DNA from: JALSIF01 sp026981635 [NCBI: bacterium]
Lineage (GTDB): Bacteria > 4484-113 > JALSIF01
DNA: 16,354 nucleotides
NCBI GenBank assembly: GCA_026981635.1
Contig: JALSIF010000181.1
Span: forward strand, 1 to 16,354
Direction: 5' to 3'
Shown: positions 159 through 16,354 of the stretch, piece after piece
How the letters are laid out: every line of letters begins with the position of its first letter
How positions within the stretch are numbered: position 1 is the first letter of the stretch
Position numbers and translations under genes: made by a program
The notes under the pieces: generated by a model
The model's input: the letters and a program-made list of their open reading frames with translations, nothing else
Database searches by the model: none
What the model was told of the DNA's origin: nothing

Positions 159-160
159 TC

Positions 161-1279: not shown

Positions 1280-2392
1280 CTTACCATCATCGGCATTCTG
1301 GTGGTGGCGCTGGTTCCCCAGGTGAAGAACGCCATGGTGAGGGCCAAGGAGTCGGTGGTGGCTCGCTCCACCGCTGATCTCAATGGCGGTATCGCCTCCT
1401 TTGCCGCCAACCACAACGGCAACTACCCAGGGGTGATGCAGGATGTGGCGGTAAGTTACCGCGACCACGGCCTGGGCGACACCCTGAGCGGTGGGGGAGG
1501 CCTCTACGGTGCTCCCAACAGCGGGCTGCTGGGACCCCAGTGTGCCGCCCAGGCGATCAACCCCTACAACGCCGCCACCCCTGCTCCGGGGACCACCCTG
1601 TTGTGGAATGGGGTGGTGGGGGGCTCCTTTGATGTGGGTTGCCTGGCCCAGATTAAAAACTCCTCCTTTGACCCCACCTTGCCCCGCTTCTTTGATGTGC
1701 TGGTGGCCTCCGACGCCCTTGACCCCTATCCCAAGAACCCCTTCAAGACCGGCACCGGCGGCGGAATGCCCATGATCAACATCTTCCAGTTCCTCTTTGA
1801 CCCCACCCAGCCCATCGGGTTTAACAACCCCACCCCCATCCTGCTGGTGGAGGACAACGGTCAGGGAGCCTACCCTGCCGCCACCGCCTGGGGGATGCCC
1901 GACCGGGTGGAGTTCAACCCCATCGCCAACGGGGGCGCCCCGGTTCCTACCCTGCCGGTCACCTTCGCCAACCTGGTGGACAACCCCTTTGAGCCCTTCC
2001 CCGACGCCGGCCGGCCCGGCTTTGGCCCCGGCGAGATCACCCTGCCCACCGGCGACACCATCGGCAACTACTTCGCCGAGGGGGACTTTGCCTATGTGCC
2101 CATCCTCACCACCGGTCCCTATGCCAACTTCATCGGCATCACCTCCGACCCCAACACCACCACCCCGGAGGATGACCGCTTCAAGGCGGGCACCCTGGTT
2201 ACCGGCTACTACCTGTTTGGCTTTGGCCGGGCAGACGGCAAGGACCGGGGCCGGTTTGAGGATGCCAAGCAGGACTTCTACGCCAAGGGGATCCCCGGCT
2301 TTGGTGGACCGGGGGTGGACACCCAGTATGAGCTGGCGGTGGCCGCCCTGTTCAACGGGGCAGTCTACTTCCACGCCGAAGGTGCTAAGTAG
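1196..2392 (+). CDS. Large GspG-like pseudopilin, first copy of a tandem pair
   Basis: This 398-residue protein starts at GTG. The 19-residue Arg-rich leader ends PRGG, followed by FTLVE (Phe20 = +1, Glu24 = +5) and a hydrophobic helix to about residue 42. An amphipathic segment follows, then a large globular domain. The motifs DPYPKNPF (176-183) and GYYLFGFGRADG (337-348) recall the C-terminal half of GspG-family major pseudopilins, where a Gly/Asp-rich loop binds calcium; that parallel is inferred. The protein is a clear paralogue of the next gene: shared blocks include INPYNAATP, WNGVVG, NIFQFLFDPT, EFNPI, DDRFKAGTLV, GIPGFGGPGVDTQYE and AALFNGAVYF. It has exactly two Cys, C116 and C149, in a segment where the next copy has none and is shorter, so a disulfide special to this copy is possible. 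It is more than twice the usual GspG length. It is probably exported by the secretion machine as a fibre subunit. Confidence 0.9.
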   Translation: MNRRRSAEVSRRLGAPRGGFTLVELLVVLTIIGILVVALVPQVKNAMVRAKESVVARSTADLNGGIASFAANHNGNYPGVMQDVAVSYRDHGLGDTLSGGGGLYGAPNSGLLGPQCAAQAINPYNAATPAPGTTLLWNGVVGGSFDVGCLAQIKNSSFDPTLPRFFDVLVASDALDPYPKNPFKTGTGGGMPMINIFQFLFDPTQPIGFNNPTPILLVEDNGQGAYPAATAWGMPDRVEFNPIANGGAPVPTLPVTFANLVDNPFEPFPDAGRPGFGPGEITLPTGDTIGNYFAEGDFAYVPILTTGPYANFIGITSDPNTTTPEDDRFKAGTLVTGYYLFGFGRADGKDRGRFEDAKQDFYAKGIPGFGGPGVDTQYELAVAALFNGAVYFHAEGAK

Positions 2393-2988
2393 GTGAAGTG
2401 ATTTGGCGCTGACAGGGAAAGGGATGACAATGGGAGCGCGACCCACCACCACCGGTAGCGGCGGGGGATTTACCCTGGTTGAGCTGATGGTCGTTCTCGT
2501 CATCATCGGAATCCTGGTGGTGGTGCTGGTGCCGGTGGTGAAGGGGGTGAGGGAGCGGAGCAAAGAGCAGGCGGTAAGCACCAACACCGCCGCCATCTCC
2601 CAGGCGCTGAACAACTTCGCCTCCCAGCACGACGGCTTCTATCCCGGGGTGATGCTGGACATCACCGTCCCCTTTAAGCCCCACGCCCTGGGGGACATCA
2701 TCTCGGGGGGCGGTGTCCTGTGGCCGGCGGGAAACCCCATAAACCCCTACAACGCCGCCACCCCCCTGCCGGGGAATGCGGCGGTGTGGAACGGGGTGGT
2801 GGGAGACGGCTTTGACAGCAACGCCCTGGCAGCGGCCAAGCAGGCGGGTAGCTTCAATGTGCCCAAGTTCTTTGATGTGCTGGCCGCCGAGGAGGCGCTC
2901 ACCGAGTATCCGGTCAACCTGTTTGCCGCCGGCGCCGGTGGCGCCCAGCGAATGGTAAACATCTTCCAGTTCCTCTTTGACCCCACCC
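1778..2988 (+). repeat. 31-base identical block shared by the tandem paralogues (1778-1808 and 2958-2988)
   Basis: The bases encoding NIFQFLFDPT are identical in both copies at 1778-1808 and 2958-2988, within otherwise diverged paralogues. It is the longest exact match I found between the two genes by eye. The span given covers both copies. Confidence 0.75.
2391..2396 (+). promoter_or_regulatory. Ribosome binding site favouring the TTG start at 2403
   Basis: AGGTGA lies six bases before TTG 2403 and overlaps the preceding stop. Competing in-frame starts are ATG 2424 and ATG 2430, preceded by an AGGG/AAGGG stretch (2414-2423) at a usable distance. The frame opens only after a TGA at 2394-2396. 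The start is therefore uncertain among the three; all leave the prepilin signal intact. Confidence 0.5.
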
Positions 2989-3581
2989 GGGCCATCGGGG
3001 TAAACAACCCCATTCCCATTCTGCTGGTGCCCGACAACGGGGAGGGGATCTATCCGGTGACCACCGGCTTCAACCTGGGACCCATTGCCGCCCGGGTTGA
3101 GTTCAACCCCATCACCAACGGAGGGGTTCCCTTCCCCACGCTGCCCATCACCTACGCCAACCGGGCCCAGAACCCCTTTGAGCCCAGCCCCGCCGACGGC
3201 AGGCCAGGCTTTGCCCCCGGCGAGACGGCGGGACCCAATGGCAGGGTGAGGAACTTCTTTGCTCCCGGGGACTTTGCCTACGTGCCGGTGCTCTCCGCTG
3301 GCCCCTACGCCTCCTACATCGGGTCGCCCATTGACCCGGACAGCTCCAACTTTGAGGACGACCGCTTCAAGGCGGGCACGCTGGTTTCGGGCTACTACCT
3401 GTTCGGCTTTGGGCGGGGTGACGCCGACCCCAAAGAGCTCCGCTTTGAGCAGGAGAAGCAGGACTTCTACGCCCGTGGCATCCCCGGCTTCGGTGGACCT
3501 GGGGTGGATACCCAGTACGAGATGGCGGTGGCCGCCCTCTTCAACGGGGCGGTCTACTTTGAGAAGGTGGGGGTGAGGTGA
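2403..3581 (+). CDS. Large GspG-like pseudopilin, second copy of a tandem pair
   Basis: From TTG 2403 this is 392 residues. From ATG 2424 it would be 385, with a 15-residue leader of more typical length. The signal is TGSGGG|FTLVE (Phe23 = +1, Glu27 = +5 counted from the TTG), then a Val/Ile-rich helix to about residue 45 and a Lys/Arg/Glu-rich amphipathic stretch. The globular domain aligns along its whole length with the preceding protein. The differences are a gap of about 12 residues where the first copy has the segment with Cys116, loss of both cysteines, and loss of the ADG motif after GYYLFGFGR (here GDAD). The last residues repeat the GIPGFGGPGVDTQYE...AALFNGAVYF block. The stop TGA overlaps the next start by four bases. 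The tandem arrangement and divergence suggest an old duplication with specialisation, perhaps major and minor subunits of one fibre. Confidence 0.9.
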   Translation: MALTGKGMTMGARPTTTGSGGGFTLVELMVVLVIIGILVVVLVPVVKGVRERSKEQAVSTNTAAISQALNNFASQHDGFYPGVMLDITVPFKPHALGDIISGGGVLWPAGNPINPYNAATPLPGNAAVWNGVVGDGFDSNALAAAKQAGSFNVPKFFDVLAAEEALTEYPVNLFAAGAGGAQRMVNIFQFLFDPTRAIGVNNPIPILLVPDNGEGIYPVTTGFNLGPIAARVEFNPITNGGVPFPTLPITYANRAQNPFEPSPADGRPGFAPGETAGPNGRVRNFFAPGDFAYVPVLSAGPYASYIGSPIDPDSSNFEDDRFKAGTLVSGYYLFGFGRGDADPKELRFEQEKQDFYARGIPGFGGPGVDTQYEMAVAALFNGAVYFEKVGVR

Positions 3582-5407
3582 GCATGAGAGGAATCGGGAA
3601 AGGACTGCTCTCTGGCCGGAAGGTCCCCCCTGCCCGGCAGGGCTTCACCCTGATAGAGCTGATGACCGTACTGGTCATCTTCAGCCTGATTGCGGTACTG
3701 CTGTGGGCATTTCTTGCCGGCACCTTTGAGGTCATCCGGCTAAATGAAGAGAAGGCCAAGCTCAACAACAATGCCCGCGCGGCCCTAAACCAGATCGCCG
3801 AGGCCATCCGCACCGCCTCGCGCATCCCGCGGGCGGTGGATCGAGACCGGGACGGACTCCCCGACGATGATCCCAACGACTTTGGCTCTCTGGCTAGTTG
3901 GGTGATTGGTGAGCTAAATATCATCGGTCAGCCCGATCTGCCGGTGACCAACTTCCAAAGCGAGGCCTTTAGCGACCGGCTAATGCTTGAGCACCGCTCC
4001 GGGTTTGAGTACAACTTCGGTGGCCTGCTCATCAGAGACATTTACTCTGGCTCCGACTTTACCCTGAAGATCCCCGGCCGGGCGGGGCAGCGGGTGGCGG
4101 CGCGCCGGGTGCTCTTCCAGCTCGCCATCCCGGCCGACTTTCAGGAGGGTGTCGGTGGAACACCCTACTACATGGCACCCATAAACAGCAGCCGCAGTGA
4201 CAACATGACCATTGATGGCTATCCCGCGGTGGTCAACTTCGGCGGCACCTCAAATACAGCGGTGCTAACCGAGGATCTGTTCTACGACCTCACCACCTTT
4301 GACACCTTCAACCAGGCCACCGCCATGGGGCTCACCCCACCGGTGGGTAACACCGGAGTGGAGCAGCCCCCTGTAAGGGGAGTGCCGCGGCTTTCCAGTG
4401 CGGTGGAGACGGTGGTGGTACGCCAGCAGCCCGTCACCTCAAACATTACCCGCATCCGCTTTGAGTATCTCCACGAGGTGCCGGTATACCTGGCGGAAGA
4501 GGACGGCAGCGGCAACTGCCAGCCGGTCCTGGTGGACACCAACGGCAACGGCATCCCCGACAGCCCGGTGGAGGTGGATCGGATCCTGGTGCCCATTGAT
4601 GTGGCGGAGAATGGCAATGGGCGGATGGTTAGCGACCTGGATGCGGTCTATGACCGCCTCCTGAGCCCAACCGAACGGGCCAACAGCTTCAGAGCCTGGA
4701 ACATGGACGCCTACTACCTGGTGGGCGAAGAGGATCGCGAACCCCCCGACTTCAACGCCTACCTCCGCTGCGGGGCAGGCAAGGTCCAGTTTGCTCCCAT
4801 GTCCTACAACGTGGAGGACCTAATTGGGTTTGACAACAGCGACCCTGCCCTGGATGGGCAACCGGACGGCAACGCCGACGGCATCCCCGACGGGGACGGC
4901 ATCCCCGACGACCCGGTTCCCTATTGGTGGGTGCCCTACATCAAGGCGATCCGGGTAACCCTGGTGGCCACCCCCACCCGGGTGATTGAGGAGCGCCGCA
5001 ACAACAGCGGAAGACTGGTGGATGTGGATGGGGACGGCACCCTGGAGCGCATCTACTATAAGCTAGACAGCCCCTATCCCTACCTCTATGATCCCGCTTT
5101 GGCGGGAGGCATAGCGGATCCTTTCGTTCCCATCAAGAACCGGCCCGACCTCATGATCGGGGCCAACAAGGACATCATCGTAACCCGTACGGTGAGGACC
5201 GAGAACATGCCCTCCCTCACCCCGGCGCTGGACCCCCTTGACCCGCGTCTGGGAGGGACCAGAAGGGCCGACTTCAACTATCTGGTGGGGGTCATCTATT
5301 CCCTGAGCGATTTCGGTGAGCGCCAGGTGAGGACCGATCCGGTTGAGCTGGTAAGAAGGCTGGCCATGAGGCTGGGGATCAATCTGGGTCAGGTGGCTGG
5401 TCCCTGA
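3578..5407 (+). CDS. gspJ: GspJ-like minor pseudopilin with calcium-loop insertions
   Basis: This 609-residue protein starts at GTG 3578 with a four-base GTGA overlap; ATG 3584, two codons later, is possible. The leader ends PARQG, then FTLIE (Phe23 = +1, Glu27 = +5) and a hydrophobic helix to ~50. The following EEKAKLNNNARAALNQIAEAIRTASRI stretch is typical of GspJ/PilW minor pseudopilins, and the C-terminus (VIYSLSDFGERQVRTDP) resembles the last strands of such proteins. GspJ is normally about 200 residues, so this one is about three times longer. The extra length includes Asp/Asn/Gly loops like thrombospondin type 3 or EF-hand calcium sites: DRDRDGLPDDD (88-98), DTNGNGIPD (320-328), a duplicated GIPD loop (426-445) and DVDGDGTLE (482-490). 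Two Cys (C314, C398) could pair. GspJ is established as part of the pseudopilus-tip complex with GspI and GspK, which fits its place just upstream of the GspK-like giant. PilW is the main alternative. Confidence 0.8.
   Translation: MSMRGIGKGLLSGRKVPPARQGFTLIELMTVLVIFSLIAVLLWAFLAGTFEVIRLNEEKAKLNNNARAALNQIAEAIRTASRIPRAVDRDRDGLPDDDPNDFGSLASWVIGELNIIGQPDLPVTNFQSEAFSDRLMLEHRSGFEYNFGGLLIRDIYSGSDFTLKIPGRAGQRVAARRVLFQLAIPADFQEGVGGTPYYMAPINSSRSDNMTIDGYPAVVNFGGTSNTAVLTEDLFYDLTTFDTFNQATAMGLTPPVGNTGVEQPPVRGVPRLSSAVETVVVRQQPVTSNITRIRFEYLHEVPVYLAEEDGSGNCQPVLVDTNGNGIPDSPVEVDRILVPIDVAENGNGRMVSDLDAVYDRLLSPTERANSFRAWNMDAYYLVGEEDREPPDFNAYLRCGAGKVQFAPMSYNVEDLIGFDNSDPALDGQPDGNADGIPDGDGIPDDPVPYWWVPYIKAIRVTLVATPTRVIEERRNNSGRLVDVDGDGTLERIYYKLDSPYPYLYDPALAGGIADPFVPIKNRPDLMIGANKDIIVTRTVRTENMPSLTPALDPLDPRLGGTRRADFNYLVGVIYSLSDFGERQVRTDPVELVRRLAMRLGINLGQVAGP
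4877..4910 (+). repeat. Two tandem copies (period 18) of a 16-base calcium-loop unit
   Basis: GACGGCATCCCCGACG occurs at 4877-4892 and again at 4895-4910. Each copy encodes DGIPD. A related segment lies at 4549-4562 in the same gene and another in the giant gene near 16171. In-frame slippage could add or remove loops. Confidence 0.75.
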
Positions 5408-5491: not shown

Positions 5492-7210
5492 ATGAGAAGC
5501 CCAATGAGAGAGCGAACCCCTAAGCGGGCGAGGCCCGGTGTGGCCCTCATCGTGGTCCTCGCAGTGGTGGCGCTGATGCTGCCGGTGGTGGTGGTCTCCA
5601 TCGCCCTGGTCAACCAGGAGAGCGTTTCCATCTCCAACGAGATCATTGAGAGCAAGACCCGGGCGGCCGCCGAGAAGGCCATCGGCAACGCGGTCACCCA
5701 GACCAAGCTATCTAAGAGCTTCCCCAGTGTGGAGACCTCCCAGGCCCAGCCCCAGGCGGGGATCATCTCCACCACCAGCCCAGACGGAAGTGGTCAGCTT
5801 CGCTGGATGATCGTCAACAACGGGGCGGGGCCCGACGGGGTCTATGGCACCGACGACGACTTCTGGGTGGGCCCCCGCGGGGACCGTACCTTCCGCCCCG
5901 GCGACGACCCCAACGATCCCAAGAACTACCGGCTTGACTTCGGCTTCCTCAACCCCCACAGGCCCACCTACCTGGTGGAGAACTGGGCCTTCAACAACTA
6001 CAACAACCCGCTTACCACGCCCCTGCCGCCGGGCTTCGGGGAGCAGTATCCCCGCCCCTTCAACCAGTTTGGTCTGCTCGCCTTTGAGAACGGGTTCCCC
6101 ATCGGCTTTGACCCCCGCGACCCGGCCATCATAAGCCTCATCAACCCGGGCAGCGACACCGACACTCTGATGGCCCGCCTGCCCGGTTACTACCCCATGA
6201 GCGAGCCGCTGGTCCCCGAGGTGGTCCAGGGGGAGGAGGGACTCAGGCTGCCCAACCCCAATCCGGCCGATATTCTTGACTATAACCGCAACTTACTTGG
6301 TGCGCGGGCGGAGAACTACAAGCCCCTGGTGGAGAAGCTGGGCGGTGGCCCGCTGGGGATGGAGAACCTGTTCAGCTACGCCAACGTCACCGACGAAGCG
6401 GGCAGGCTGAACCTAAACCTTTTCGTCAAGAAGCTCCGTGTGTGGATCCAGGAGGACATTGACCTGGACTACGACCTGCAGGGCAACCCCACCCCCGACT
6501 GGAACGACCCGGTAAACCGGGGCACGCCGGGGGACATGCACTGGGCCTGGATTGACAACCCCCTCTTCCCCGACCGCGACACCCGTCGGCTCTACTACTG
6601 GGACGAGACGGTTACCGACCCGCGGGGCTACTCCACCGACCCGGCCGACTACTGCGGGTTTGAGCCCGGGGCGCTGATTGACATTGACGGCGATCCCGAA
6701 AACCACCCCTGGGAGACCATCCAGAAGGTCTACTGGCAGGACCCCAACAACCCCGACTGCAACTGGGCGCGCTTTGCCATCAAGAGCAAGAAGATGCTGG
6801 TAAACGCCCTGGGCATTACGGCCAAGCAGGCGGAGAACCTGCTTTTGGCTCTAAACCCCTCCATTACCACCCTGCCTCCAGAGTACTGGGGGGACAATGC
6901 GGCCGGGCTCACCATTGACCCCAACACCAACCCGCGGTTGGACGCACCGGTCATCCTGCCCAACCCGGGAGCGGTGACCATCAATTTCTCCGGTCCCACC
7001 CCAGTTTCGCGACAGATTGACCTTACCCCGGGAAGCTACCAGGGTCCCGACAACCTGGGACCTCCGGTGGCCCCCGGCTCTACCCCAACTCTCACCGACG
7101 ACTTCCCCCTGCCCGAGCCCCACCCCTTCAGCTCCCTGCGGGAGATCCTCAATGTGAGGGGGTTCACTGAGGCCGACTACCGTCGGATAAGCGATCTGGT
7201 CACCGTCTGG
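5492..7210 (+). other. Protein domain: GspK N-terminal half (leader, helix, first SAM-like region)
   Basis: Residues 1-573 of the giant protein. In order: basic leader; hydrophobic helix (17-40) followed by NQESVSISNEI; DEAGRLNLN (301-309), the GspK core motif; KMLVNALGITAKQAENLLLAL (~434-454), a SAM/helix-hairpin-helix-like pair; and FSSLREILNVRGFTEADYRRI (546-566) leading to VTVWSYD. GspK caps the pseudopilus tip, and the missing Glu5 is known for that family. Confidence 0.75.
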
Positions 7211-10200
7211 AGCTACGACACCAACTACATCGGCACCGGCATCGTGGACGAGCCGCCCCGCACCGAGGACGGCCAGATCACCGAGACCGACCGGCTAAAC
7301 GACCCACGCTGGGTGATTGACAACCGGCCCATCTTCCCGCCCACCCTCACCACCTACCAGCGGGAGGTGGACCGGCTGTGGGAGTTCTTCCAGCAGCACC
7401 TGGGGTTCAAGTTTGAGAAGATCGCTCTTCCCCCCATTGACCGCCTGGGCCGCACCCCCAGCGAGCGGGCCCAGTTTACCGTTAACCCCGACGGGACGCT
7501 CACCGACCCGGTAACCGGCGACACCTTGCCCTACGACCTTAACCCCCAGCTTACCAAGGACAGCCTGCTCAGCTTCTACATCTGGAAGTATGGGCTTCTA
7601 AGCTCTGACGACTACACCTACGACCCGGCGGCGGGCCGGCCGGGGGTGGCCGACTTCATCAACCAGTTCCCCGGCATCCCCGCCCCGGGTACCAAGTCAA
7701 GCTTCCTGCCCATCCCGCTTCCCTTCGTGGGGCAGGTGCTCCAGTTCCACTGGCTGTTTGCTGAGCTTGCCGCCGGCACCCCCAAGGACGACCCCTTCTC
7801 CGGCCTCATCAACCGTGACCTGGACGGGGATGGGGTACCTGACAACCCCAACAACGATGTGATCGTCCCGCCCCACGACGTCTCCTCCATCGCCGACCTA
7901 CTGGAGGTGCCCCTCTACAAGTTTGATCACCTGAGCCTATCCGCCATGGCCTCGCCGCCCTCGGGCTTCGTCTGCCAGGACATCCAGGGGGCCGACCAGA
8001 TCACCGTCACCTACCTCATCTCCATGTCGGACATCATCTTCAAGGACCGGGGCGAGTGGCGGCCCACCACCGTTGCCGGTGCCCTCTATCCCAATGAGCT
8101 CACCGCCGAGTATGAGATCCACTTTGACGTGGACAACGACGGGGTGGAGGACGCCGACCCCATCCTGGGCGGCATTGAGCGGCCCGATCTGCCCAACACA
8201 TACGTGGGAGTGCTCTCCCTCAACAACACCGGCGGGGCAAGTCCGGCCAACGCCGCCGAGATAAACGACGACCACCGCCTCCCCCTGATCCAGCTTCCCG
8301 GCTCGGACAACATCGCCCTGCTGGTGGCGGGCGGCTATGTGGATGAGGAGCCCGACGATGGCTCGGTGGACGACTACAACGGCGACGGCCTGCGCTTCCC
8401 CATTGACGGGGAGCAGATCGCCGACAAGGCGCCCAACCTCAAGGCCCAGTGGACCTTCAACCTGGCCGATGTGCCGCCGCCCAACCCGGCCCTGGCCGGT
8501 CAGGCGGTGGTGGTCAACGGGCGCCGCTTCTACTACGACGCCCACGGCAACCCCTTCATCTCCACCCGCATCTGGGTGGTCAAGAACCCGGGCACTCCCC
8601 AGGAGACCAGGGCCGACGAGATCGTCCGGGTCTACCTGCAGGAGAACTGCGACGCCCAGATCCCGCTTAGGACCAACATCCTGGCCATCCGCCAGGACCT
8701 CAACACCTTCCGCATCATCTCCTCCACCGCGGGCGGAGTGAACCCCACCGGCTCCTTCTATGACCCCACCGGCGCCATCTGGTTTGACTGGGACTACGAC
8801 GCCAGCGCCACCCCCAACGACCCGCCGGGGATTGACGTGGGGGTGGACCCGCCGGCGCCGCCCGACCTTGACCCCGACGGGCGCTGGCCGCCGCCCCCCG
8901 ACCGGGGGAGCGACAATCTGACCAACCGGGGGTTCAACGACCCGCGCGAGATAACCCTCACCCTGAACAACGCGGCCAACCGGTTTGTCACCCTCCGGGT
9001 GTCCAACTTTGACCCCGCCGGTCCGCCGCCGCCCACCGGTGAGCAGGACAGCGACACGGTGGAGCTGGAGATCTTGGGGGGCGGGGCGGCCCTGGTGGGC
9101 GAGGTGGTGGCCACCCGGCCGGTGGTCACCTGGGGCGGCAGCCAGATCCTGCGCATCGGCGTGTACGGCGGCGGTGCCCCCTATGACCTGGTGGTCAATG
9201 TGGTTGACCCGGCTGGGGTGCCCTTCCCGCCCATCCTGAGAAACGATGTGAACTCAAACGTGATCGACCTGCCGCTTCCCTTTGAGCTCAACCGGGCGGG
9301 CACCTACACGGTCACGGTAAACATCTCCGACTCCTCCACCCCGGTGCAGAACACGGTGGTCTCCACCACCTTTGAGGTGGCCTTCGGGGTGGGTGGTAAC
9401 CGGCGCAACTTCCAGGATGTGCCCTCGGTCACCGCCAGCCTGGACGTCATCCCGCTGGACCCGCCCCTCAAGGGCTTCCGCACCCGCGCCCTGCTGGCCG
9501 GGGCGGTGGGGGCGGTGCAGCTTCGCTGGGAGGTGACCGACCTTCAGGGCAACACCCTCTGGCAGGGGTTTGACGGCACCTTCCCCGCCCCGGCCGGGGC
9601 GCTGCCCATGGTCTCCACCGATCCCGAGCCCATCTTCCAGTTTGACAGCGGGAGCGGCTCGGACGGGGTCTACATCGTAAAACTTGAGGTGATTGACGAC
9701 GCCTCGCCCACCGGGCGGCGCTCCAACAGCAACTCCATCATCGCCTCGGACAGTGCGGCGGTGGTGCTCTATAGCGCCACCACCAGCCCCTTTGCCGACC
9801 AGCCCACCGCGGTGCTGGTGGCAGATGTCCCCGGCAGCGCCAACCCCAACAACAACCCGGGTGCCACCCCGCCCCAGTCGCCCTTCATTGCGCCAAACAA
9901 TGTGGTGCCCACAACGCCACCTGGCCCCAACACGCCGCAGCTTATAAACGGGGCCTTCGGGACAGACTTCCCGCTGAGCTCGGTGATGCTGCCGCCGGGG
10001 GCGGACCTCACCATCTACGGAATCAACTTTGACCCGGTGGCAGAAAACAACATCGTCACCTTCGGCGGCAACGTCACCCAGCCGGCGAGGAGCGTCGGGC
10101 CCCACCCCGACCCGGGGCTGGCCGCCCTCGGCCTGCAGGCGCTTACGGTGACCGTGCCGGCGGCGGCGAGAAGCGGCTTTATCACCGTATCCAACGCGGG

Positions 10201-13200
10201 GGGCAACTCCAACCGGGTCTTCTTCATGACCAACTTCACCGTCGCCTTTGACCTGATCGGCTCCATGAACCCGGGGGTGCAGAGAAACCTCCGCTTTGAG
10301 CTGGACTACCAGGGCGACGGGGTGGTGGACGAGGTGATAGAGACCGGGGCGCTGCCCGGATTTAACGGCCAGGTGAGAAACGGCCAGGGCGGCTTTACCC
10401 TGGTCCACGACTACTCGCGGGACGGCTTCGGCAACTACTACGCCACCCTCAAGGTGACCGATCTAGCCAGCGGGAAGGTGGCCTACAGCCGCCAGCTCAT
10501 CCAGATTACCGACCTCACCCCGGTGAGCACCGGCAGCCCGCGGCCGGAGGCCTTTGGCCTCACCGCCCAGATCGAGTCGCTTACCAACGACCAGTTCCTC
10601 CCCGCCGGCGGCCTCACCACCGCCCAGTTCAGGGCGCTGGTGGACGGCGTGTCGGGAGCTGCCCTGGAGGGGCTGGAGTATGTCTGGACCCTGGAGGGCA
10701 GGGGAGTGGTGGGCACCGGCCAGAACCTGAGCCTGGCGCTGGATGCCTCCAACAGGGCGCGCATCCTCTCCCTCAAGGTGGTGGCCGATCTTGCCACCCA
10801 GCAGGTGGTAAACACCGGCAGCGAGCGGGTCTACTACGCCACTAACGCCACCGGCCAGAACTCCATCCAGGCGGTGGACCTGAGCGACCCGGCCACCGTA
10901 ATCCAGATCACCGACCCGGGCGGAAGTGAAGAGTTCACCCCCGACGTGACCGGTGACCGGTCGGTGCTGGCCTACACGGTAAGCGGCCCCACCTTCAACA
11001 TCGCGGTGGCCAACGGGGACGGCAGCGGAGAACAGATACTCGCCAGCCCCTTCAACGACACCAACCCGACCCTCTCAAGCGACGGGTCGCGCATCTACTT
11101 TGCCTCTGACGAGAGCGGCATCTTCCAGATCCACCGGATGGACGCCGACGGGGCCAACCGCCAGCAGGTGACCGGAGGACCCAATCCCAAGTTTGACCCC
11201 GATCTGTCGCCGGACGACGGGCGGCTCACCTATGTGGAGGAGATCGCCCCCGGCATCCACCACCTGATGGTGGCCAACGCCGACGGCACCGGGGTAACCG
11301 ACCTCACCAGCCTGGCCGGCATCCCCGAGACCACCATCCGCCGCCCGCGCTTCAGCCCGGACGGCGCCCAGATCGTCTTCTCCCTGGGCAACCCGGGCGA
11401 CATCTGGGTGGTGAATGTGGACGGGACCGGCCTCCTCCAGCTCACCTCCGGGCCGGAGGACGACTTCGGGGCCGACTTCAACTCCACCGGTGATGCGGTG
11501 GTCTTTACCCGCCGGGTGGGGCTTACTTCTGACCTCTACACTGTGCCCGCCACCGGCGGGGCTGAGTCACTGCTTCCCGGCTGGCCCAAGGCGGGGACCG
11601 AGCTCAACCTGGACGTGGTGCCGGCGCCGGGGGAGGCCCTCACCACCAAGGTGGTGGCCACCGATACCTTCATCATCCCCGCCACCGAAGAGAACCAGAC
11701 CGTCCCGCCAAGCCAGCTGCTAAACGGCGACATCTACTACAGCCGGGAGGTCTCGCCGGGAGTGTCGGCGGTCTTCAGGGTTGACCCCACCACCGGCGGC
11801 GAGACCCAGCTCACCACCCCGCCCCCGCCCGGCGGCGGAGGCGGAGGTGGGTGGAATGCACCCCAGGTGGTTGATTCGATTGGGAATGTGGGGCTCCATT
11901 GCTCCATCGAGCAGGTAAACGGACGGCCGGCCATGAGCTACATGGCGTTTCCTGGTGAGCTACGCTTTGCCATCAACGCCCAGCCAGATGCTTCCGGTGT
12001 TTGGCAGACCCAAGTGGTTGGGTCGACTGCCACGCCTCTCATCCCCCACAGCACCTCCCTTGAAGTTGTCCAGGGTAGGCCAGCCATCGCCTATCCCCTG
12101 ACGGCGGGGGTTGGATATGCCATCAACACTCAGCCGGACGGTTCAGGGGCTTGGCAGTTCAATACCATCGACACGGTTCAGCCCTATAACGTCACCCTGA
12201 AGCTTCTGAATGCCGGTCGTCCTGCGGTGGCCTATGGGGTTTTCAGTGGCAATGAGTTGAGGTTTGCCTACTCGGCTACGCCTGACGGATTGGGAGCGTG
12301 GTCGGTTCAAGTGGTGGATAGCTCAGGAAACATCTCTCACCTTTCCATGGAGGTGATTCAGGGCCGCCCGGCCATCGCCTATCGGGTCAACTCCCTGCCC
12401 GAGATCAGGTATGCGATCAACTCGGCTGCCGACGGCTCGGGAGCTTGGACCATTGTGACGGTGGTAAGTGATCCTAACCTCATTCTCAACTCGGGGGTTT
12501 CTCTGTCGATCATCAATGGACTTCCCGCCATCGTCTACTCCACCACCCCCAACCAGGTAGTCTTTGCCATAAACGACCAGCCAGACGGGCTCGGCACCTG
12601 GACCTTCTACAACGCCTTTAGCCCCGTGGGGGGAGATCAGCTGAGTGGTGAGTCGCTGGCCGAAGTAACCGCCCTGCCTGGTATTGCTGCCGGATCTGCG
12701 ATCTTCCCGCTCCAGCAATTCTTCGTCATCAACGACCAGCCCGACGGCTCGGGCACCTGGTTCAGTCAGCTGGTGGACGGGGCTCCCAACACAGGGTGGT
12801 GGCCCGCGCTTGATGTGGTGGTGGGCAGGGCTTCAATCTGCTACTACGATGCGGGTGTCCGGCAACTCAAGTTCGTAAATGCCGGGGCGGGCGGCACCTT
12901 CCCCGCCGGTGACTTTGACCCGGCGGTGACCTACAACGCCACCGCCTTTGGCTTTACCCGCGCCGACGGCGTGGGCAGCGCCCAGATCTGGATCGGCGAC
13001 CCGGCCGACCCGGCTGGTGCCCAGGTGTGGGTGGGCAACAACGGCACCGAGAACTGGCTGGGCGACATCGCCGACAACCTGGAGCTCGTAACCTGGGTAA
13101 GCGACGCCAGCGGCGCCTTTGAGGTCTGGGTAGGGAGGCTTGACGGCTCCACCGCCTTCCAGATCTCGGCCGGCGACGTGGACCGCGAGTCGGCGCCAAG

Positions 13201-16200
13201 CTTTAGCCCCAACGCCCGGCGGGTGGTGTGGGCCTCGGCCAGCGGCCAGATCATGAGCCGGGCCATAAACCCGCTCACCGGCGAGCCCCAGGGGCCCATT
13301 GAGACCATCTACGGCGGCCCGCGTCCCGCCTTCAGCCCGGTCTACAACCGGAGCGGCACCCGCATCTACTTCATCCTGGACGACGGCGGCACCGGCCTGG
13401 TCTACTCCATGCTGCCCGACGGAAGCGACCTCCGGCAGGAGCAGGACAACGCCGGCGAGGTGGCAGACATCTCCATCGCGGTGGCTCCGCTGGAGGACCG
13501 CTTCGCCTTCCTCGCCCAGCGCCAGCCCACTCCGAGCCGCTTCAACGCCTCAAGCGCCCTCCTCACCGAGCAGTTCGGCGGCAACCCGCCACCACCCCTT
13601 TCAGGCGGCGAGACCACCGTAATCAGCTTCCCCAACGACGTCTTTACCCGCCAGATCGACTGGAGCGGAGTGCTCCTCAGCGGCGGGCCCTCCAACCCGG
13701 CGGCGGCCCAGGTCTCCGCCAACCTGGTGGCCGACCCGCCCTACTTCCTCACCAACGGCGGCGGGGTGGCTGAGATGCGCATGCGGGCCTACGGCGGGGC
13801 CGCTCCGCTCAGCTACTTCCCCGACGTGAACGCCGACGGAGTGGTGGACGGCGGCGGCATCTTCCCCTCCGGTGGAAGCATGCTGCTTAGCTTCCCCAAC
13901 CCGCTGGACCAGCTGGACAATGGCTTTATCTCCAGCGACCCGGTCAACGCCGGCACCTACTCCAACGACGGCTTCTTCGCCGCCATCCCCGGCGCCCTGG
14001 ACGGGCTGAACCAGCCATATGTTGCCCGCCGCGGCACCTACGACGGCTTCCTGGCCGTGCAGGAGCTGGGGGCAGGCAACTACGCCTTTGAGCAGCAGTA
14101 CTTCTTCGTCGGCGGGCGCCGCACCGGCACCCCCGGCGCGCGGGCGGGAAGCCTGAATGCCGACTTCTTCCTCGCCCCGCTGATCGGCCTTACCACCACC
14201 ACCTACCGGGCGGAGGCCTTCGTGGGCGGTGGGGTACCGCCCTACACCTGGCAGTGGACGGTGAGCAAGGCCGGCTTTGGCGTGCTTGCCACCCAAAGTG
14301 GCTCCGGCCAGACGGTGGATCCACTGGAGTTCAACCCCAGCCGCGACTCGGGCCTTGCGCCGGGTGACCAGGTGGGGGACTACGAGGTGACCCTGGACCT
14401 GGTGGACTCAACCGGCCAGACTCCGCCCGGCTTCCCCCTCACCCGCACCTTCAACGCCCAGCTCTTGCCGCTGATGGGTCAGATCTTCGTCCGCCCGCCC
14501 TCCATCGCCTTCGGCCAGACCATCACCGTCACCGCGGTGGTGGACGGCGGCGAGCCGCCCTACGACATCACCATTGACTTCGGCGACGGCCGGGTGGAGA
14601 CGGTGACCGGCGTCCAGCCGGGCAGCTCCATCCTGGGCATCGGCCAGGGTGCTGTGCTGGAGTTTGACCACGTCTACGACCGCAAGGGCGAGTTCATCGT
14701 CACCCTGCGGGTGGAGGACAGCGCCGGAACCGTCAAGGAGGACCCCAACCCGGTCCCGCTGGGCGACACCAACTACAGCGAGCGGGTCTTCGTGGGCGAC
14801 ATGTTGCCCCTTAGGATCTCGGTGATGGCCACACCTTCCTCGGGGGTGGGCCAGTTTGACCTCTACGCCAACTATGTGGTCTCCGGTGGGGTGAGAAATG
14901 ATCTCGGCGGCTACTCCATCACCATCCAGCTCATTGACTCCAACGGCCAGGTGGTGAGCGGTCCCTTCATCCGCACCGCCCCCTCCACCTTCGGCCCTGA
15001 CGGCCGTCCTCGCACCCGAGACGACCTCACCCCGGGAGAGATCGCCTCGGTCTTCAACACCACCGCCGACCTGGGCGGGGCGGAGGGGCTGCCGGTTCGT
15101 CTCAGGGTGCCCGGGCCGGGCAACTATATTTTGCAGGCCTTCGTCTCCGACGGCGGCGGCGAGTTCAGCTACGACCAGACCCCCATCTTCTCCACCGGCT
15201 ACCTGGCTCCTTCCGACTACACCGGGCTGGGCAACCCGCGCATCCGTACCGGCCTTGACGGGCGGCCGCTGCACGCCTTCCGCATCTGGGTTGACCCCAT
15301 CTACGGCACCGATGGAAGTGGTTTTGACCCGGACAACATCAACAACTCGGTAAGGCTGATGGAGTCTGACCTGCAGGTGCTGGGCGACCTGCTGATGACC
15401 GACCCCAACCCGCTCTCCATCGGCTACCAGGGAGCCACCGACCCGCTCCAGCAGCCCCTCTACCACATCACCCCGGTCTCCTTCGGCCCCTTCCGCTTCT
15501 TCACCAATGACTTCTACGACACCTTCACCATCGGGCGGATAAACATCAACACCGCCTCCAAGGAGGTGCTGACTGGCCTCTTCTCCATGATCAAGCGGCG
15601 CCGGGCGTGGAAGGTTGACCCCGTAACCGGCCAGCTGGTGCGCGATCCTGAAAACGACGAGTACCTGTCCCTAAGTGAGGCGGCTGCCCTGGCCCAGGCG
15701 GTGGTGGACTACCGCAACGCCTTCTACTCGGCGATGAAGCCGGAGATCCCGCCGGAGACCGACTTTGCCGGCTACAAGCGGGACAGCCTGGGGGTGACCA
15801 GCCTCAGGGTGGACCACCTGCCGGTGATTGGGCCCTATCTCGGCCAGGCTCCGCTGGGCCTCAAGGAGGGGGGCGACTACCTGGACGGCCTGCTGGTGGA
15901 AACGCCGGCCAGGGACGACGTGATCAACGCCTATGACCACGTGAGAGCAAGCTACTACAACGTCACCCACCCCGATGCGACCGAGAACGGAGCGGGGGTC
16001 TACCGCTTCTACGCCCCCTCCGACATCGCGGTGGTCCGCGAGCCGCTGCCAGGGGAGAGCGAGGAGGAGTACTCCCGCTACCTGAACTCGGTGATCGGAA
16101 ATACCCTTGACCCCAAGGCCGGCTCCCTGCTTGCCGCCACCCGGGCCGATTCGGTGGACAACAATGCCAACGGCATCCCCGACCTGCTGGACTTCAACTC

Positions 16201-16354
16201 GGTCTACTACAACAACCCGCAGACGGCCGGCTTTGACGCCCGCTACTACTTCACCTTCAACGCCCTGCAAGGGGAGCTGATGCGCCAGGGACGCAACAAG
16301 GTGGGCATGATCTACAGCCCCGCCCTGGGCAGCATCCAGGGTGATCAGGTGGCG
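5492..16354 (+). CDS. Giant GspK-like pseudopilus-tip protein with multidomain insertion (partial, no stop in window)
   Basis: The frame is open from ATG 5492 to the right edge: 3,621 codons without a stop. An in-frame TGA at 5477-5479 makes ATG 5492 the first usable start; ATG 5504 is possible. The leader ends RARPG, cut after Gly16, and the mature protein begins VALIV, so position +5 is Val21, not Glu, a hallmark of GspK. DEAGRLNLN (301-309), a helix-hairpin-helix-like segment (428-460) and FSSLREILNVRGF...VTVW (546-573) match GspK. The motif that normally follows, ININTASKEVL, appears only at ~3350, followed by VVDYRN (3404). Between them are Asp-rich calcium loops (D776, D879, D2778), a Pro/Asp linker, Ig-like and TIG domains, a PD40 propeller split by a seven-repeat module, and a PKD domain. 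Usual GspK length is about 300-350. The protein probably tips the fibre built by the upstream subunits; an adhesin or substrate-binding role is inferred. I read the frame across the low-GC module and found no frameshift. Confidence 0.85.
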   Translation, partial: MRSPMRERTPKRARPGVALIVVLAVVALMLPVVVVSIALVNQESVSISNEIIESKTRAAAEKAIGNAVTQTKLSKSFPSVETSQAQPQAGIISTTSPDGSGQLRWMIVNNGAGPDGVYGTDDDFWVGPRGDRTFRPGDDPNDPKNYRLDFGFLNPHRPTYLVENWAFNNYNNPLTTPLPPGFGEQYPRPFNQFGLLAFENGFPIGFDPRDPAIISLINPGSDTDTLMARLPGYYPMSEPLVPEVVQGEEGLRLPNPNPADILDYNRNLLGARAENYKPLVEKLGGGPLGMENLFSYANVTDEAGRLNLNLFVKKLRVWIQEDIDLDYDLQGNPTPDWNDPVNRGTPGDMHWAWIDNPLFPDRDTRRLYYWDETVTDPRGYSTDPADYCGFEPGALIDIDGDPENHPWETIQKVYWQDPNNPDCNWARFAIKSKKMLVNALGITAKQAENLLLALNPSITTLPPEYWGDNAAGLTIDPNTNPRLDAPVILPNPGAVTINFSGPTPVSRQIDLTPGSYQGPDNLGPPVAPGSTPTLTDDFPLPEPHPFSSLREILNVRGFTEADYRRISDLVTVWSYDTNYIGTGIVDEPPRTEDGQITETDRLNDPRWVIDNRPIFPPTLTTYQREVDRLWEFFQQHLGFKFEKIALPPIDRLGRTPSERAQFTVNPDGTLTDPVTGDTLPYDLNPQLTKDSLLSFYIWKYGLLSSDDYTYDPAAGRPGVADFINQFPGIPAPGTKSSFLPIPLPFVGQVLQFHWLFAELAAGTPKDDPFSGLINRDLDGDGVPDNPNNDVIVPPHDVSSIADLLEVPLYKFDHLSLSAMASPPSGFVCQDIQGADQITVTYLISMSDIIFKDRGEWRPTTVAGALYPNELTAEYEIHFDVDNDGVEDADPILGGIERPDLPNTYVGVLSLNNTGGASPANAAEINDDHRLPLIQLPGSDNIALLVAGGYVDEEPDDGSVDDYNGDGLRFPIDGEQIADKAPNLKAQWTFNLADVPPPNPALAGQAVVVNGRRFYYDAHGNPFISTRIWVVKNPGTPQETRADEIVRVYLQENCDAQIPLRTNILAIRQDLNTFRIISSTAGGVNPTGSFYDPTGAIWFDWDYDASATPNDPPGIDVGVDPPAPPDLDPDGRWPPPPDRGSDNLTNRGFNDPREITLTLNNAANRFVTLRVSNFDPAGPPPPTGEQDSDTVELEILGGGAALVGEVVATRPVVTWGGSQILRIGVYGGGAPYDLVVNVVDPAGVPFPPILRNDVNSNVIDLPLPFELNRAGTYTVTVNISDSSTPVQNTVVSTTFEVAFGVGGNRRNFQDVPSVTASLDVIPLDPPLKGFRTRALLAGAVGAVQLRWEVTDLQGNTLWQGFDGTFPAPAGALPMVSTDPEPIFQFDSGSGSDGVYIVKLEVIDDASPTGRRSNSNSIIASDSAAVVLYSATTSPFADQPTAVLVADVPGSANPNNNPGATPPQSPFIAPNNVVPTTPPGPNTPQLINGAFGTDFPLSSVMLPPGADLTIYGINFDPVAENNIVTFGGNVTQPARSVGPHPDPGLAALGLQALTVTVPAAARSGFITVSNAGGNSNRVFFMTNFTVAFDLIGSMNPGVQRNLRFELDYQGDGVVDEVIETGALPGFNGQVRNGQGGFTLVHDYSRDGFGNYYATLKVTDLASGKVAYSRQLIQITDLTPVSTGSPRPEAFGLTAQIESLTNDQFLPAGGLTTAQFRALVDGVSGAALEGLEYVWTLEGRGVVGTGQNLSLALDASNRARILSLKVVADLATQQVVNTGSERVYYATNATGQNSIQAVDLSDPATVIQITDPGGSEEFTPDVTGDRSVLAYTVSGPTFNIAVANGDGSGEQILASPFNDTNPTLSSDGSRIYFASDESGIFQIHRMDADGANRQQVTGGPNPKFDPDLSPDDGRLTYVEEIAPGIHHLMVANADGTGVTDLTSLAGIPETTIRRPRFSPDGAQIVFSLGNPGDIWVVNVDGTGLLQLTSGPEDDFGADFNSTGDAVVFTRRVGLTSDLYTVPATGGAESLLPGWPKAGTELNLDVVPAPGEALTTKVVATDTFIIPATEENQTVPPSQLLNGDIYYSREVSPGVSAVFRVDPTTGGETQLTTPPPPGGGGGGGWNAPQVVDSIGNVGLHCSIEQVNGRPAMSYMAFPGELRFAINAQPDASGVWQTQVVGSTATPLIPHSTSLEVVQGRPAIAYPLTAGVGYAINTQPDGSGAWQFNTIDTVQPYNVTLKLLNAGRPAVAYGVFSGNELRFAYSATPDGLGAWSVQVVDSSGNISHLSMEVIQGRPAIAYRVNSLPEIRYAINSAADGSGAWTIVTVVSDPNLILNSGVSLSIINGLPAIVYSTTPNQVVFAINDQPDGLGTWTFYNAFSPVGGDQLSGESLAEVTALPGIAAGSAIFPLQQFFVINDQPDGSGTWFSQLVDGAPNTGWWPALDVVVGRASICYYDAGVRQLKFVNAGAGGTFPAGDFDPAVTYNATAFGFTRADGVGSAQIWIGDPADPAGAQVWVGNNGTENWLGDIADNLELVTWVSDASGAFEVWVGRLDGSTAFQISAGDVDRESAPSFSPNARRVVWASASGQIMSRAINPLTGEPQGPIETIYGGPRPAFSPVYNRSGTRIYFILDDGGTGLVYSMLPDGSDLRQEQDNAGEVADISIAVAPLEDRFAFLAQRQPTPSRFNASSALLTEQFGGNPPPPLSGGETTVISFPNDVFTRQIDWSGVLLSGGPSNPAAAQVSANLVADPPYFLTNGGGVAEMRMRAYGGAAPLSYFPDVNADGVVDGGGIFPSGGSMLLSFPNPLDQLDNGFISSDPVNAGTYSNDGFFAAIPGALDGLNQPYVARRGTYDGFLAVQELGAGNYAFEQQYFFVGGRRTGTPGARAGSLNADFFLAPLIGLTTTTYRAEAFVGGGVPPYTWQWTVSKAGFGVLATQSGSGQTVDPLEFNPSRDSGLAPGDQVGDYEVTLDLVDSTGQTPPGFPLTRTFNAQLLPLMGQIFVRPPSIAFGQTITVTAVVDGGEPPYDITIDFGDGRVETVTGVQPGSSILGIGQGAVLEFDHVYDRKGEFIVTLRVEDSAGTVKEDPNPVPLGDTNYSERVFVGDMLPLRISVMATPSSGVGQFDLYANYVVSGGVRNDLGGYSITIQLIDSNGQVVSGPFIRTAPSTFGPDGRPRTRDDLTPGEIASVFNTTADLGGAEGLPVRLRVPGPGNYILQAFVSDGGGEFSYDQTPIFSTGYLAPSDYTGLGNPRIRTGLDGRPLHAFRIWVDPIYGTDGSGFDPDNINNSVRLMESDLQVLGDLLMTDPNPLSIGYQGATDPLQQPLYHITPVSFGPFRFFTNDFYDTFTIGRININTASKEVLTGLFSMIKRRRAWKVDPVTGQLVRDPENDEYLSLSEAAALAQAVVDYRNAFYSAMKPEIPPETDFAGYKRDSLGVTSLRVDHLPVIGPYLGQAPLGLKEGGDYLDGLLVETPARDDVINAYDHVRASYYNVTHPDATENGAGVYRFYAPSDIAVVREPLPGESEEEYSRYLNSVIGNTLDPKAGSLLAATRADSVDNNANGIPDLLDFNSVYYNNPQTAGFDARYYFTFNALQGELMRQGRNKVGMIYSPALGSIQGDQVA
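8783..8926 (+). other. Protein linker: Pro/Asp-rich segment
   Basis: Residues ~1098-1145 of the giant protein are rich in Pro and Asp (DVGVDPPAPPDLDPDG, RWPPPPDRG). This looks like an extended linker between the N-terminal part and the first Ig-like beta-sandwich (about 8950-9400, with a GGGAPYDLVVNVVD strand pattern). Confidence 0.5.
9968..10219 (+). other. Protein domain: TIG/IPT (Ig-like) domain
   Basis: Residues ~1493-1576 of the giant protein read PPGADLTIYGINFDP...NIVTFGGN...LTVTVPAAARSGFITVSNAGGNSN. This is the classic TIG/IPT order: G-x-NF loop, NxVxFGG strand, LxVxVP strand, SGxIxVxNxGG. Such domains are common in bacterial cell-surface binding proteins. Confidence 0.8.
10823..11821 (+). 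other. Protein domain: PD40/TolB-like beta-propeller, first part
   Basis: Residues ~1778-2110 contain repeated blades of the type P-x-x-S-x-DG-x-x-I-x-F-x-S...I-x-x-x-x-x-DG-x-x-x-x-x-LT. Examples are LSSDGSRIYFASDESG, LSPDDGRLTYVEE, FSPDGAQIVFSLG and FNSTGDAVVFTRR, with linking DADGANRQQVT and NVDGTGLLQLT. This is the TolB/WD40-like (PD40) propeller pattern. About six blades precede the Gly tract. The last one ends GGETQLTT and is left without its partner strands. Confidence 0.8.
11831..11851 (+). repeat. Seven-glycine tract encoded by G-rich near-repeat
   Basis: Seven consecutive Gly codons (residues 2114-2120) follow four Pro codons. The + strand carries closely spaced GG runs, capable of slippage or two-tier G-quadruplex formation, preceded by a C-rich stretch (11816-11830). 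It marks the exact left boundary of the low-GC repeat module. Confidence 0.85.
11852..12898 (+). repeat. Seven-repeat module (predicted seven-bladed propeller) inside the giant protein
   Basis: Residues 2121-2469 consist of seven units of 50, 50, 49, 49, 51, 53 and 47 residues. Each starts at a Trp (W2121, W2171, W2221, W2270, W2319, W2370, W2423). The consensus is W-x-x-x-x-V-x ... x-x-x-G-R-P-A-x-x-Y ... x-R-F-A-I-N-x-x-P-D-G-S-G-x. Units 1-5 are regular; unit 6 degrades the GRPAIAY motif (LPGIAAG) and unit 7 keeps only parts (VGRASICYY). Seven units of ~50 residues strongly suggest a seven-bladed beta-propeller of a type unlike the PD40 propeller around it. Function unknown. Composition differs sharply from the flanks. 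Confidence 0.82.
12899..13522 (+). other. Protein domain: PD40/TolB-like beta-propeller, second part
   Basis: Residues ~2470-2678 resume the PD40 pattern: FDPAVTYNATAFGFTRADG then AQIWIG, LVTWVSDASGAFEVWVGRLDG, PSFSPNARRVVWASASGQI, NRSGTRIYFILDDGGTGLVY and MLPDGSDLRQ. The first strand set reads as the continuation of the blade that ends TQLTT before the seven-repeat module. A small internal near-duplication (QIWIGDPADPAG / QVWVGNNG) is present. Confidence 0.75.
14483..14794 (+). other. Protein domain: PKD-type Ig-like domain
   Basis: Residues ~2998-3080 follow the PKD pattern: GQTITVTAVVDGGEPPYDITIDFGDG (DFGDG at 3029-3033), then FDHVYDRKGEFIVTLRVEDSAG. A neighbouring Ig-like unit just upstream contains GGGVPPYTWQWTV. 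PKD domains are typical extracellular spacer or binding modules. Confidence 0.85.
15536..15724 (+). other. Protein domain: GspK C-terminal SAM-like/helix-hairpin-helix segment
   Basis: RININTASKEVLTGLF (from R3349) and AAALAQAVVDYRN (ending ~3409) match the INVNTA...aivayR signature that closes the second SAM-like domain of GspK. In ordinary GspK it follows the VTVxS strand within tens of residues; here about 2,780 residues intervene. At least 200 further residues follow it, including another Asp/Asn loop (D3556 on, VDNNANGIPD), and the end is outside the window. Confidence 0.7.

What the first reader, a model, noticed from the sequence alone, without database searches (positions are those of the whole stretch)
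5492..16354. A pseudopilus-tip protein (GspK-like) carrying a ~2,700-residue insertion
Seen: a 3,621-codon ORF, still open, with GspK features at both ends. These are a leader without Glu at +5, DEAGRLNLN at 301 and FSSLREILNVRGF...VTVW at 546-573, then ININTASKEVL...VVDYRN only at 3350-3409. Known: in GspK these last two elements are close neighbours in one SAM-like domain. Inference: a huge multidomain cargo (Ig/TIG/PKD/propellers) was inserted into a loop of the tip subunit. This would turn a secretion pseudopilus into a fibre with a giant surface-exposed tip, by analogy with pilus-tip adhesins. I know of no described GspK of this size.
Basis: partly seen in the sequence, partly recalled or inferred. 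Interest (0 to 1): 0.88.

Follow-up and report, generated by a model that had tools for sequence, protein, structure and literature searches.

The report
Giant pilus-tip protein with inserted cargo
A little-known group of bacteria encodes a pilus-tip-type protein of about 3,800 amino acids in which roughly 2,770 residues of binding-type and propeller-like domains appear to sit between the two halves of an otherwise recognisable tip subunit, a very large example of building a surface-display device into a pilus.

Summary
Observation confirmed, interpretation largely upheld. The 3,621-codon ORF is real; its C-terminus lies on another contig, giving about 3,815 aa. GspK signatures sit in order at the two ends: NCBIfam GspK 3-91 and 174-211 in the N-part, 212-259 in an orthologue's C-part. 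With the insert left out, the class profile aligns across the junction to 19 ordinary GspK proteins (E 6.6e-13); swapped halves align only piecewise, reversed not significantly. Correction: the split lies at the boundary between two Pfam domains, T2SSK_1st and T2SSK, not inside one. The same gap is 4-14 residues in 16 ordinary GspK proteins, 549-635 in three proteins of other lineages and about 1,900-2,770 in 8 proteins of this class; 9 of 10 class genomes have both halves. Most curated cut-offs are missed and the structure models were unusable, so co-folding is untested. A secretin and PilM follow the gene; a PilB/GspE-PilT-PilC set lies elsewhere, which fits a type IV pilus-like fibre at least as well as a secretion pseudopilus. 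Best reading: a giant modular tip pilin displaying binding domains.

The parts
161..1183 (+). GspG-like prepilin (340 aa)
   Evidence: N_methyl above cut-off; GspG TIGR01710 E 2.1e-13, below its cut-off
1196..2392 (+). prepilin (398 aa); resembles the next gene by eye
   Evidence: N_methyl above cut-off
2403..3581 (+). prepilin (392 aa)
   Evidence: N_methyl above cut-off; GspG TIGR01710 E 1.7e-11, below its cut-off
3578..5407 (+). large prepilin (609 aa) directly before the giant; role like GspJ/PilW is inferred from position only
   Evidence: N_methyl above cut-off; no GspJ match at E 1
5492..16354 (+). giant GspK-like protein, residues 1-3621 of about 3815; continues on contig G000:C26
   Evidence: orthologues
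5531..5704 (+). prepilin-type cleavage site without Glu+5 and alpha1 helix (about residues 14-71)
   Evidence: hhalign residues 13-75 to GspK columns 1-62; NCBIfam GspK 3-91
6392..6418 (+). DEAGRLNLN (301-309)
   Evidence: hhalign residues 288-314 to GspK columns 86-113; DE.GR.N.N found in 8 of 8 class proteins
6764..7210 (+). first T2SSK domain (about residues 425-573), ending FSSLREILNVRGF...VTVW
   Evidence: GspK model 174-211 at residues 540-577; in orthologue L029 T2SSK_1st 62-105 just over its gathering cut-off
7226..15532 (+). insert, residues 579-3347 (2,769 aa)
   Evidence: only GspK-profile match inside it has E 0.51; 1,896-2,770 residues in 8 class proteins as printed (that script counts one too many)
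9992..10531 (+). well-conserved block of the insert (1501-1680), TIG-like then PKD-like by eye
   Evidence: 39-49% mean identity in 60-residue bins; names TIG and PKD here are recalled patterns, not family hits
11000..11569 (+). TolB/PD40-type beta-propeller stretch (1837-2026)
   Evidence: PD40 E 4.7e-10, above cut-off; TolB propeller model E 2.5e-32, below its cut-off
11924..12931 (+). seven repeats spaced 47-52 residues, perhaps a second propeller
   Evidence: repeat motifs at residues 2145, 2196, 2243, 2292, 2344, 2395, 2446, found with a pattern written after reading the stretch
14498..14737 (+). PKD domain (3003-3082)
   Evidence: PF00801 E 5.5e-6, above cut-off
15533..16354 (+). C-terminal GspK part from GRININTAS (3348); the ITTRSYVFRI element and the end are on C26
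   Evidence: hhalign residues 3339-3414 to GspK columns 197-277; in orthologues GspK model 212-259 and T2SSK from position 1; in the window itself T2SSK only E 0.095; C26 end

Best explanation
The ORF encodes a GspK-type minor pilin of about 3,815 aa whose two T2SSK (SAM-like, a recalled name) domains are separated by a 2,769-residue multidomain cargo. Proposed working: (1) the prepilin leader is cleaved and alpha1 anchors the subunit; lacking Glu+5, as GspK does (recalled), it is the tip-most subunit, joined to pilins encoded upstream. (2) The N- and C-terminal ends fold together as the GspK head, while the cargo loops out at the hinge between the two domains. (3) A type IV filament machine, with its secretin and PilM encoded next door and probably the PilB/GspE-PilT-PilC set found elsewhere, pushes this tip through the secretin and displays the cargo outside as a giant ligand-binding or adhesive tip, possibly retractable. 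Shown: sequence anatomy, class-wide conservation, order of GspK elements, gene neighbourhood. Inferred: co-folding of the ends, tip location, export, pairing with that ATPase set, and the binding function.
For: GspK model positions 3-91 and 174-211 in the N-part, 212-259 in an orthologue's C-part. Joined profile: one local alignment across the junction, columns 171-277, score 105.6, E 6.6e-13; global over 1-310, E 3.9e-21. Swapped order: local hits of 61, 52 and 52; global only columns 1-205, E 2.5e-13, score 72. Reversed: best E 0.0098. Of 8 whole-protein matches to the GspK profile the first 7 lie in the ends. T2SSK_1st ends and T2SSK starts at the split. Eight class proteins keep both ends while about residues 1741-2760 are poorly shared (2-17% identity per 60-residue bin). 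Three proteins of other lineages have the same split site with 549-635 residues; TolB matches inside 2 of 3 and PD40 inside 1. In L120 and L121 a secretin and PilM follow, as here. Precedents: ComZ (passages of PMC6561018), modular pilins (passages of PMC8179133).
Against: NCBIfam GspK cut-off (130 bits) far from met: 31.4 bits in the window's N-part; T2SSK gathering cut-off met in 0 of 6 C-parts, T2SSK_1st in 1 of 4 N-parts. In the own genome neither PF03934 nor NF037980 reaches E 0.001. At E 0.1 the GspK model matches 7 of 8 N-parts but 3 of 8 C-parts. The FSSL element fits two places of the GspK profile about equally (columns 172-205, score 53.7; 239-281, score 50.0), and in the whole-protein run the second place wins. 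The joined score (105.6) is not more than the two parts' sum, so it shows order and adjacency only. The GspK set was filtered by the INxNTA motif (19 of 30 loci kept). No usable structure. Further insertions lie inside both halves. Of the three other-lineage loci, L119 is followed by a GGDEF protein, not a secretin. Export of so large a protein is not shown, and the ATPase set is unlinked.
Confidence: 0.65

Rival explanations
1. GspK-like tip of a secretion pseudopilus: the insert stays mostly periplasmic and captures exoproteins or triggers their secretion instead of being displayed outside.
For: Two of the pilins here match GspG best, and a pilin of the G003 locus matches GspH; the secretin matches MshL and GspD about equally; the PilB-type ATPase of G000:C291 scores slightly better as GspE (541 vs 528 bits) and its PilC also as GspF.
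Against: PilM follows the gene; PilT above its cut-off beside the ATPase in G000 and G003, although not linked to the giant; a cargo several times the size of the head is hard to keep in the periplasm (inference). GspC and GspL were not searched for.
Confidence: 0.2
2. The ends are only pilin-like anchors: a giant adhesin or scaffold that uses a prepilin leader for membrane insertion and is never built into a filament.
For: Curated GspK cut-offs not met; extra stretches inside the head compared with ordinary GspK.
Against: GspK elements kept in order across the class; a large prepilin directly upstream in all 9 class loci read (starts read by eye, two family-scanned) and secretin/PilM downstream here and in L120 and L121.
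Confidence: 0.12
3. ININTAS is an independent ComEA-type helix-hairpin-helix domain, so there is no split GspK.
For: Such domains occur beside PKD domains in another protein of the class (L077) and match better than T2SSK at the C-terminus of other large GspK-like proteins (L122, L082).
Against: No HHH family matches any of 6 C-parts at E 0.1 while T2SSK matches all 6 from position 1; the C-part also has a second, weaker match to the downstream GspK element (columns 262-288, probability 38.6).
Confidence: 0.03
4. Assembly chimera or fusion artefact.
For: The window contig ends inside the gene; 317 contigs.
Against: Seven other genomes have both halves in one ORF.
Confidence: 0.01

Closest known systems
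GspK (T2SS tip pseudopilin; NF037980, PF21687 T2SSK_1st, PF03934 T2SSK)
   Same: No Glu+5; alpha1; DExGRLNLN; F-S-x-x-E-L...VTV closing the first domain; INxNTA opening the second; a TRSxxF-type element, in order
   Different: About ten times longer; 2,769 residues instead of 4-14 between the domains; below most curated cut-offs
ComZ of Thermus thermophilus (PMC6561018; abstract and passages seen)
   Same: Large extra domain inserted into a GspK-like pilin fold; proposed tip receptor
   Different: There a beta-solenoid of about 380 residues between the penultimate and last strands; here a multidomain stretch between the two T2SSK domains
Modular type IV pilins such as PilB of Streptococcus sanguinis (PMC8179133; passages seen)
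   Same: Binding modules carried by a pilin
   Different: There modules follow the pilin part; the survey's most extreme multi-domain case was 860 residues, and it searched for IPR012902, whose Pfam model N_methyl does not match this protein (that the two correspond is recalled)
Verru_Chthon cassette protein A (TIGR02600)
   Same: Weak match to residues 16-99; 4 of 8 N-parts at E 0.1, best E 0.025; also matches the large GspK-like proteins L122, L080 and L082
   Different: 11-12 bits in the window protein against a cut-off of 332.3; no member was fetched, so its own layout was not examined
Akkermansia Amuc_1098/Amuc_1101 pilus proteins (NF042912, NF045709)
   Same: The secretin and PilM downstream match these families, below cut-off
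   Different: Not compared directly; papers on them seen as a listing only

Membership tests
GspK | Prepilin-type leader without Glu+5, hydrophobic alpha1 | tested here: met
   8 of 8 leaders; GspK model 3-91 in the window's N-part
GspK | Both T2SSK domains, in order | tested here: met
   Order by hhalign; at E 0.1 T2SSK in 6 of 6 C-parts and T2SSK_1st in 2 of 4 N-parts scanned, only one over its gathering cut-off
GspK | Curated cut-offs (NF037980 130 bits; PF03934 24.2 bits) | tested here: not met
   31.4 bits in the window's N-part; best C-part 21.4; expected for a split protein but a formal miss
GspK | Ends co-fold as one pilin head | not testable with these tools
   Joined sequence not accepted; separate models pLDDT 34.6 and 32.1
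GspK | Sits at the tip with I and J subunits | not testable with these tools
   Only gene order: a large prepilin directly upstream in 9 of 9 class loci read; it has no GspJ match in the two that were scanned
T2SS (whole system) | GspC/L/M with GspE, no retraction ATPase | tested here: inconclusive
   PilM and an unlinked PilT found; GspC and GspL not searched; a GspM model matched the PilM protein weakly (E 0.0036)
Type IVa pilus | PilB, PilT, PilC, PilM, secretin | tested here: inconclusive
   G000: secretin, PilM beside the giant; PilB/GspE, PilT (over cut-off), PilC/GspF on C291; not linked to each other
PilC/PilY1 | PF05567 propeller | tested here: inconclusive
   0 of 10 class genomes, but the control search rang in none of 14 genomes
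Verru_Chthon A (TIGR02600) | Model cut-off 332.3 bits | tested here: not met
   11.0 and 12.2 bits; no match at E 0.001 in any of the 10 class genomes

The most novel reading that the evidence does not exclude
The hinge between the two T2SSK domains of GspK is a general cargo slot. Different lineages have loaded it with different display modules: TolB-type propeller repeats in the 1.5-1.6 thousand-residue proteins L119 and L120, a lamin-tail domain in L122 (about 980 residues between a weak T2SSK_1st match and the C-terminal T2SSK/HHH match), and in this class up to about 2,770 residues of PKD, Ig/TIG-like and propeller modules. The tip pilin itself thus becomes a giant surface receptor, doing in one chain what PilY1 plus minor pilins do elsewhere.
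Probability: 0.45. Interest if true: 0.75.

Novelty: new variant of a known kind. Interest (0 to 1): 0.6.

Why it matters
If right, the tip of a type IV filament or pseudopilus can carry a cargo several times larger than the 860-residue extreme of the 2021 modular-pilin survey, and the place where cargo is tolerated is narrowed to a few residues between two named domains. That gives a testable grafting site in a tip pilin, a concrete question of how a secretin passes so large a tip, and a handle on the surface biology of what is probably candidate phylum UBP7 (not cultured as far as I recall).

Tried and rejected
Structure: N-piece (751 aa) and C-piece (476 aa, from orthologue L036) predicted with 7-row alignments; mean pLDDT 34.6 and 32.1, so no fold search was run, since matches to such models would be meaningless.

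PDB sequence search with both profiles: nothing for the N-part, two hits at E 0.46 and 0.67 for the C-part.

PilY1 absence: 0 of 10 genomes, but the control rang nowhere, so not used as evidence.

G005:C83 (1,257 aa) looked like a second large GspK; it is a ComEA-type HhH plus PKD protein. G006:C76 (594 aa) matched PilX_N, DUF4900 and the GspK leader only.

Verru_Chthon A: weak leader match only. Literature: searches on GspK insertions, UBP7, modular pilins, the Verru_Chthon cassette, giant GspK and large insertions listed no title that announces a GspK of this kind. Of the papers listed I saw passages of three (PMC6561018, PMC8179133, PMC10191384) and only listings of the rest; the library lacks most subscription journals and all bioRxiv.

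Mends during work: the first extraction of GspK proteins picked wrong frames and was discarded; the motif filter kept 19 of 30 loci. A script gave a full length of 3,624 because it assumed an exact contig overlap; one search showed one mismatch and the length used is. Residue positions printed were mis-mapped; those used here are.

Full report
What is there. The window is one contig (C181) of a 1.75 Mb genome in 317 contigs. Five genes run on the plus strand: four prepilins with N-terminal methylation motifs at 161-1183, 1196-2392, 2403-3581 and 3578-5407, then the giant ORF 5492-16354. The ORF is open at the contig end; the first 151 bases of contig C26 repeat the last 151 of the window with one mismatch and carry the frame to a stop, for about 3,815 aa. 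C26 continues with a secretin (PF00263, E 5.4e-30) and a PilM protein (PF11104, E 1.3e-33) with a sub-threshold PilN match in its tail.

Who has it. Of the 10 genomes held for the class, 9 have the N-part and the same 9 the C-part. Seven relatives have both halves in one ORF of 2,839-3,761 aa; in G008 they lie on two contigs. G009 (77% complete) has neither. In 60 genomes searched with the N-part there was one further, weak match (G035, E 3.8e-4, 43 residues of the FSSL element). A scan of named genomes with the C-part found 7 loci: one titled 'bacterium isolate UBP7', two Planctomycetales, four only 'bacterium'. I read the group as candidate phylum UBP7; that rests on one record title. The C-part profile matched 15 of 385 genomes: the 9 of the class and 6 others, weakly.

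Is it a split GspK? The NCBIfam GspK model (307 positions) matches the window protein at 3-91 and 174-211 and an orthologue's C-part at 212-259. The window's own C-part, cut by the contig end, has only a T2SSK match at E 0.095. Against a profile of 19 ordinary GspK proteins (of 30 loci fetched; filtered by motif) the N-part matches columns 1-62 and 172-205, with a nearly equal alternative for the latter at 239-281, and the C-part 196-277 and 262-288. With the insert left out, one local alignment crosses the junction (columns 171-277, score 105.6, E 6.6e-13) and the global alignment covers columns 1-310 (E 3.9e-21). With the halves swapped, the best global alignment covers only columns 1-205 (E 2.5e-13, score 72) and the local hits are separate; reversed, the best E is 0.0098. 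The joined score is not above the sum of the parts: the test speaks for order and adjacency. In the whole-protein profile the matches lie at residues 13-75, 288-314, 542-575 (here best at columns 240-273), 435-575 (columns 127-205, probability 5), two very weak ones in the N-part, and 3339-3414; the only one inside the insert has E 0.51. Pfam agrees: T2SSK_1st ends at the FSSL...VTVW element (2 of 4 N-parts scanned) and T2SSK starts at ININTAS (6 of 6 C-parts scanned); HHH_3 matches the N-part element in 3 of 4 and no C-part. The insert is therefore at the boundary of two domains, not in a loop of one. That these domains are SAM-like is recalled, not from a call.

Limits. Curated cut-offs for GspK (NF037980) and T2SSK were missed in every scan made; T2SSK_1st is passed in one N-part. 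No own-genome match to either GspK family reaches E 0.001. The joined sequence cannot be given to the structure tool, and the pieces alone gave poor models; only about residues 11-20, 421-450 and 541-560 of the N-piece (numbered from window residue 10) average pLDDT 60 or more per ten-residue block.

The insert. In the window protein it holds a TolB/PD40-type propeller stretch, seven repeats spaced 47-52 residues, a PKD domain above cut-off, and Ig- and TIG-like stretches recognised by eye. Residues 1501-1680 are among the best-conserved of the protein, while about 1741-2760 are largely not shared. PKD_4 matches 6 of 8 proteins but PD40 only the window's, so the central part differs between species. 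This is expected of a binding region, but relaxed constraint would look the same.

A graded series. The stretch between the VTV and INxNTA elements is 4-14 residues in 16 of the 19 ordinary GspK proteins (3 gave no pattern match), 549, 635 and 580 in L119, L120 and L121, and 1,896-2,770 in 8 class proteins. L119-L121 come from other families of the domain (phylum not given). Two N_methyl prepilins precede the gene in L119 and L121; in L120 the one upstream ORF read showed no match. A secretin and PilM, above cut-off, follow it in L120 and L121; in L119 a GGDEF protein follows. TolB matches L119 and L120, PD40 matches L120, and nothing propeller-like matches L121. In L122 a weak T2SSK_1st match (E 0.047) ends at 327 and T2SSK starts at 1309, where HHH_3 scores better; a lamin-tail domain above cut-off lies between.

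The machine. Secretin search: 8 of 10 class genomes have two or three, G000 and G009 one; G000's only one is beside the giant. T2SSE-type ATPases were found in 10 of 10 genomes. G000:C291 carries a PilB/GspE-type ATPase, a PilT over its cut-off and a PilC/GspF; G003 carries the same set at one place on its contig C26 and a second PilT and a PilM in an apparently ordinary type IVa pilus locus at another (the other genes of that locus were read by eye). Pairing the first set with the giant locus is inference.

Working model and novelty. A tip subunit without Glu+5, closed from its two ends, with the cargo looped out at the hinge and pushed through the neighbouring secretin, is the simplest account. 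ComZ and the modular pilins are precedents in kind. Size, multidomain content and insertion site are new to me, and the literature searches named under Tried and rejected listed nothing that describes it. Hence: new variant of a known kind.

Noticed in passing
L122:3986-8257, L080:714-5429, L082:537-3656: GspK-like proteins of 1,424, 1,572 and 1,040 aa from other genomes with a lamin-tail (LTD) match between the pilin start and the C-terminal INxNTA; LTD is above its cut-off only in L122.
   Followed up: partly
161-5407: The upstream prepilins are 340-609 aa, larger than usual pilins (recalled size); 1196-2392 and 2403-3581 look like close paralogues by eye.
   Followed up: no
L026:4083-6092: PilM with a PilN match in its C-terminal part, below cut-off (E 0.0079), possibly a PilM-PilN fusion.
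   Followed up: no
L136:9172-10986: The second PilB-type ATPase of G003 carries an MshE-type cyclic di-GMP-binding domain above cut-off.
   Followed up: no
L119:446-1996: A GGDEF protein directly after the 1,509-aa GspK-like gene.
   Followed up: no
L077:4220-7990: A 1,257-aa protein in G005 with ComEA-type HhH and four PKD_4 stretches; not a GspK.
   Followed up: partly
L087:533-2389 and 2429-3994: Two proteins that look kinase-like from their starts, with a C-terminal VNINTA/ININTA stretch.
   Followed up: no
155-2614, minus strand: An 819-codon ORF antisense to the pilins; probably a shadow of GC-rich coding DNA.
   Followed up: no
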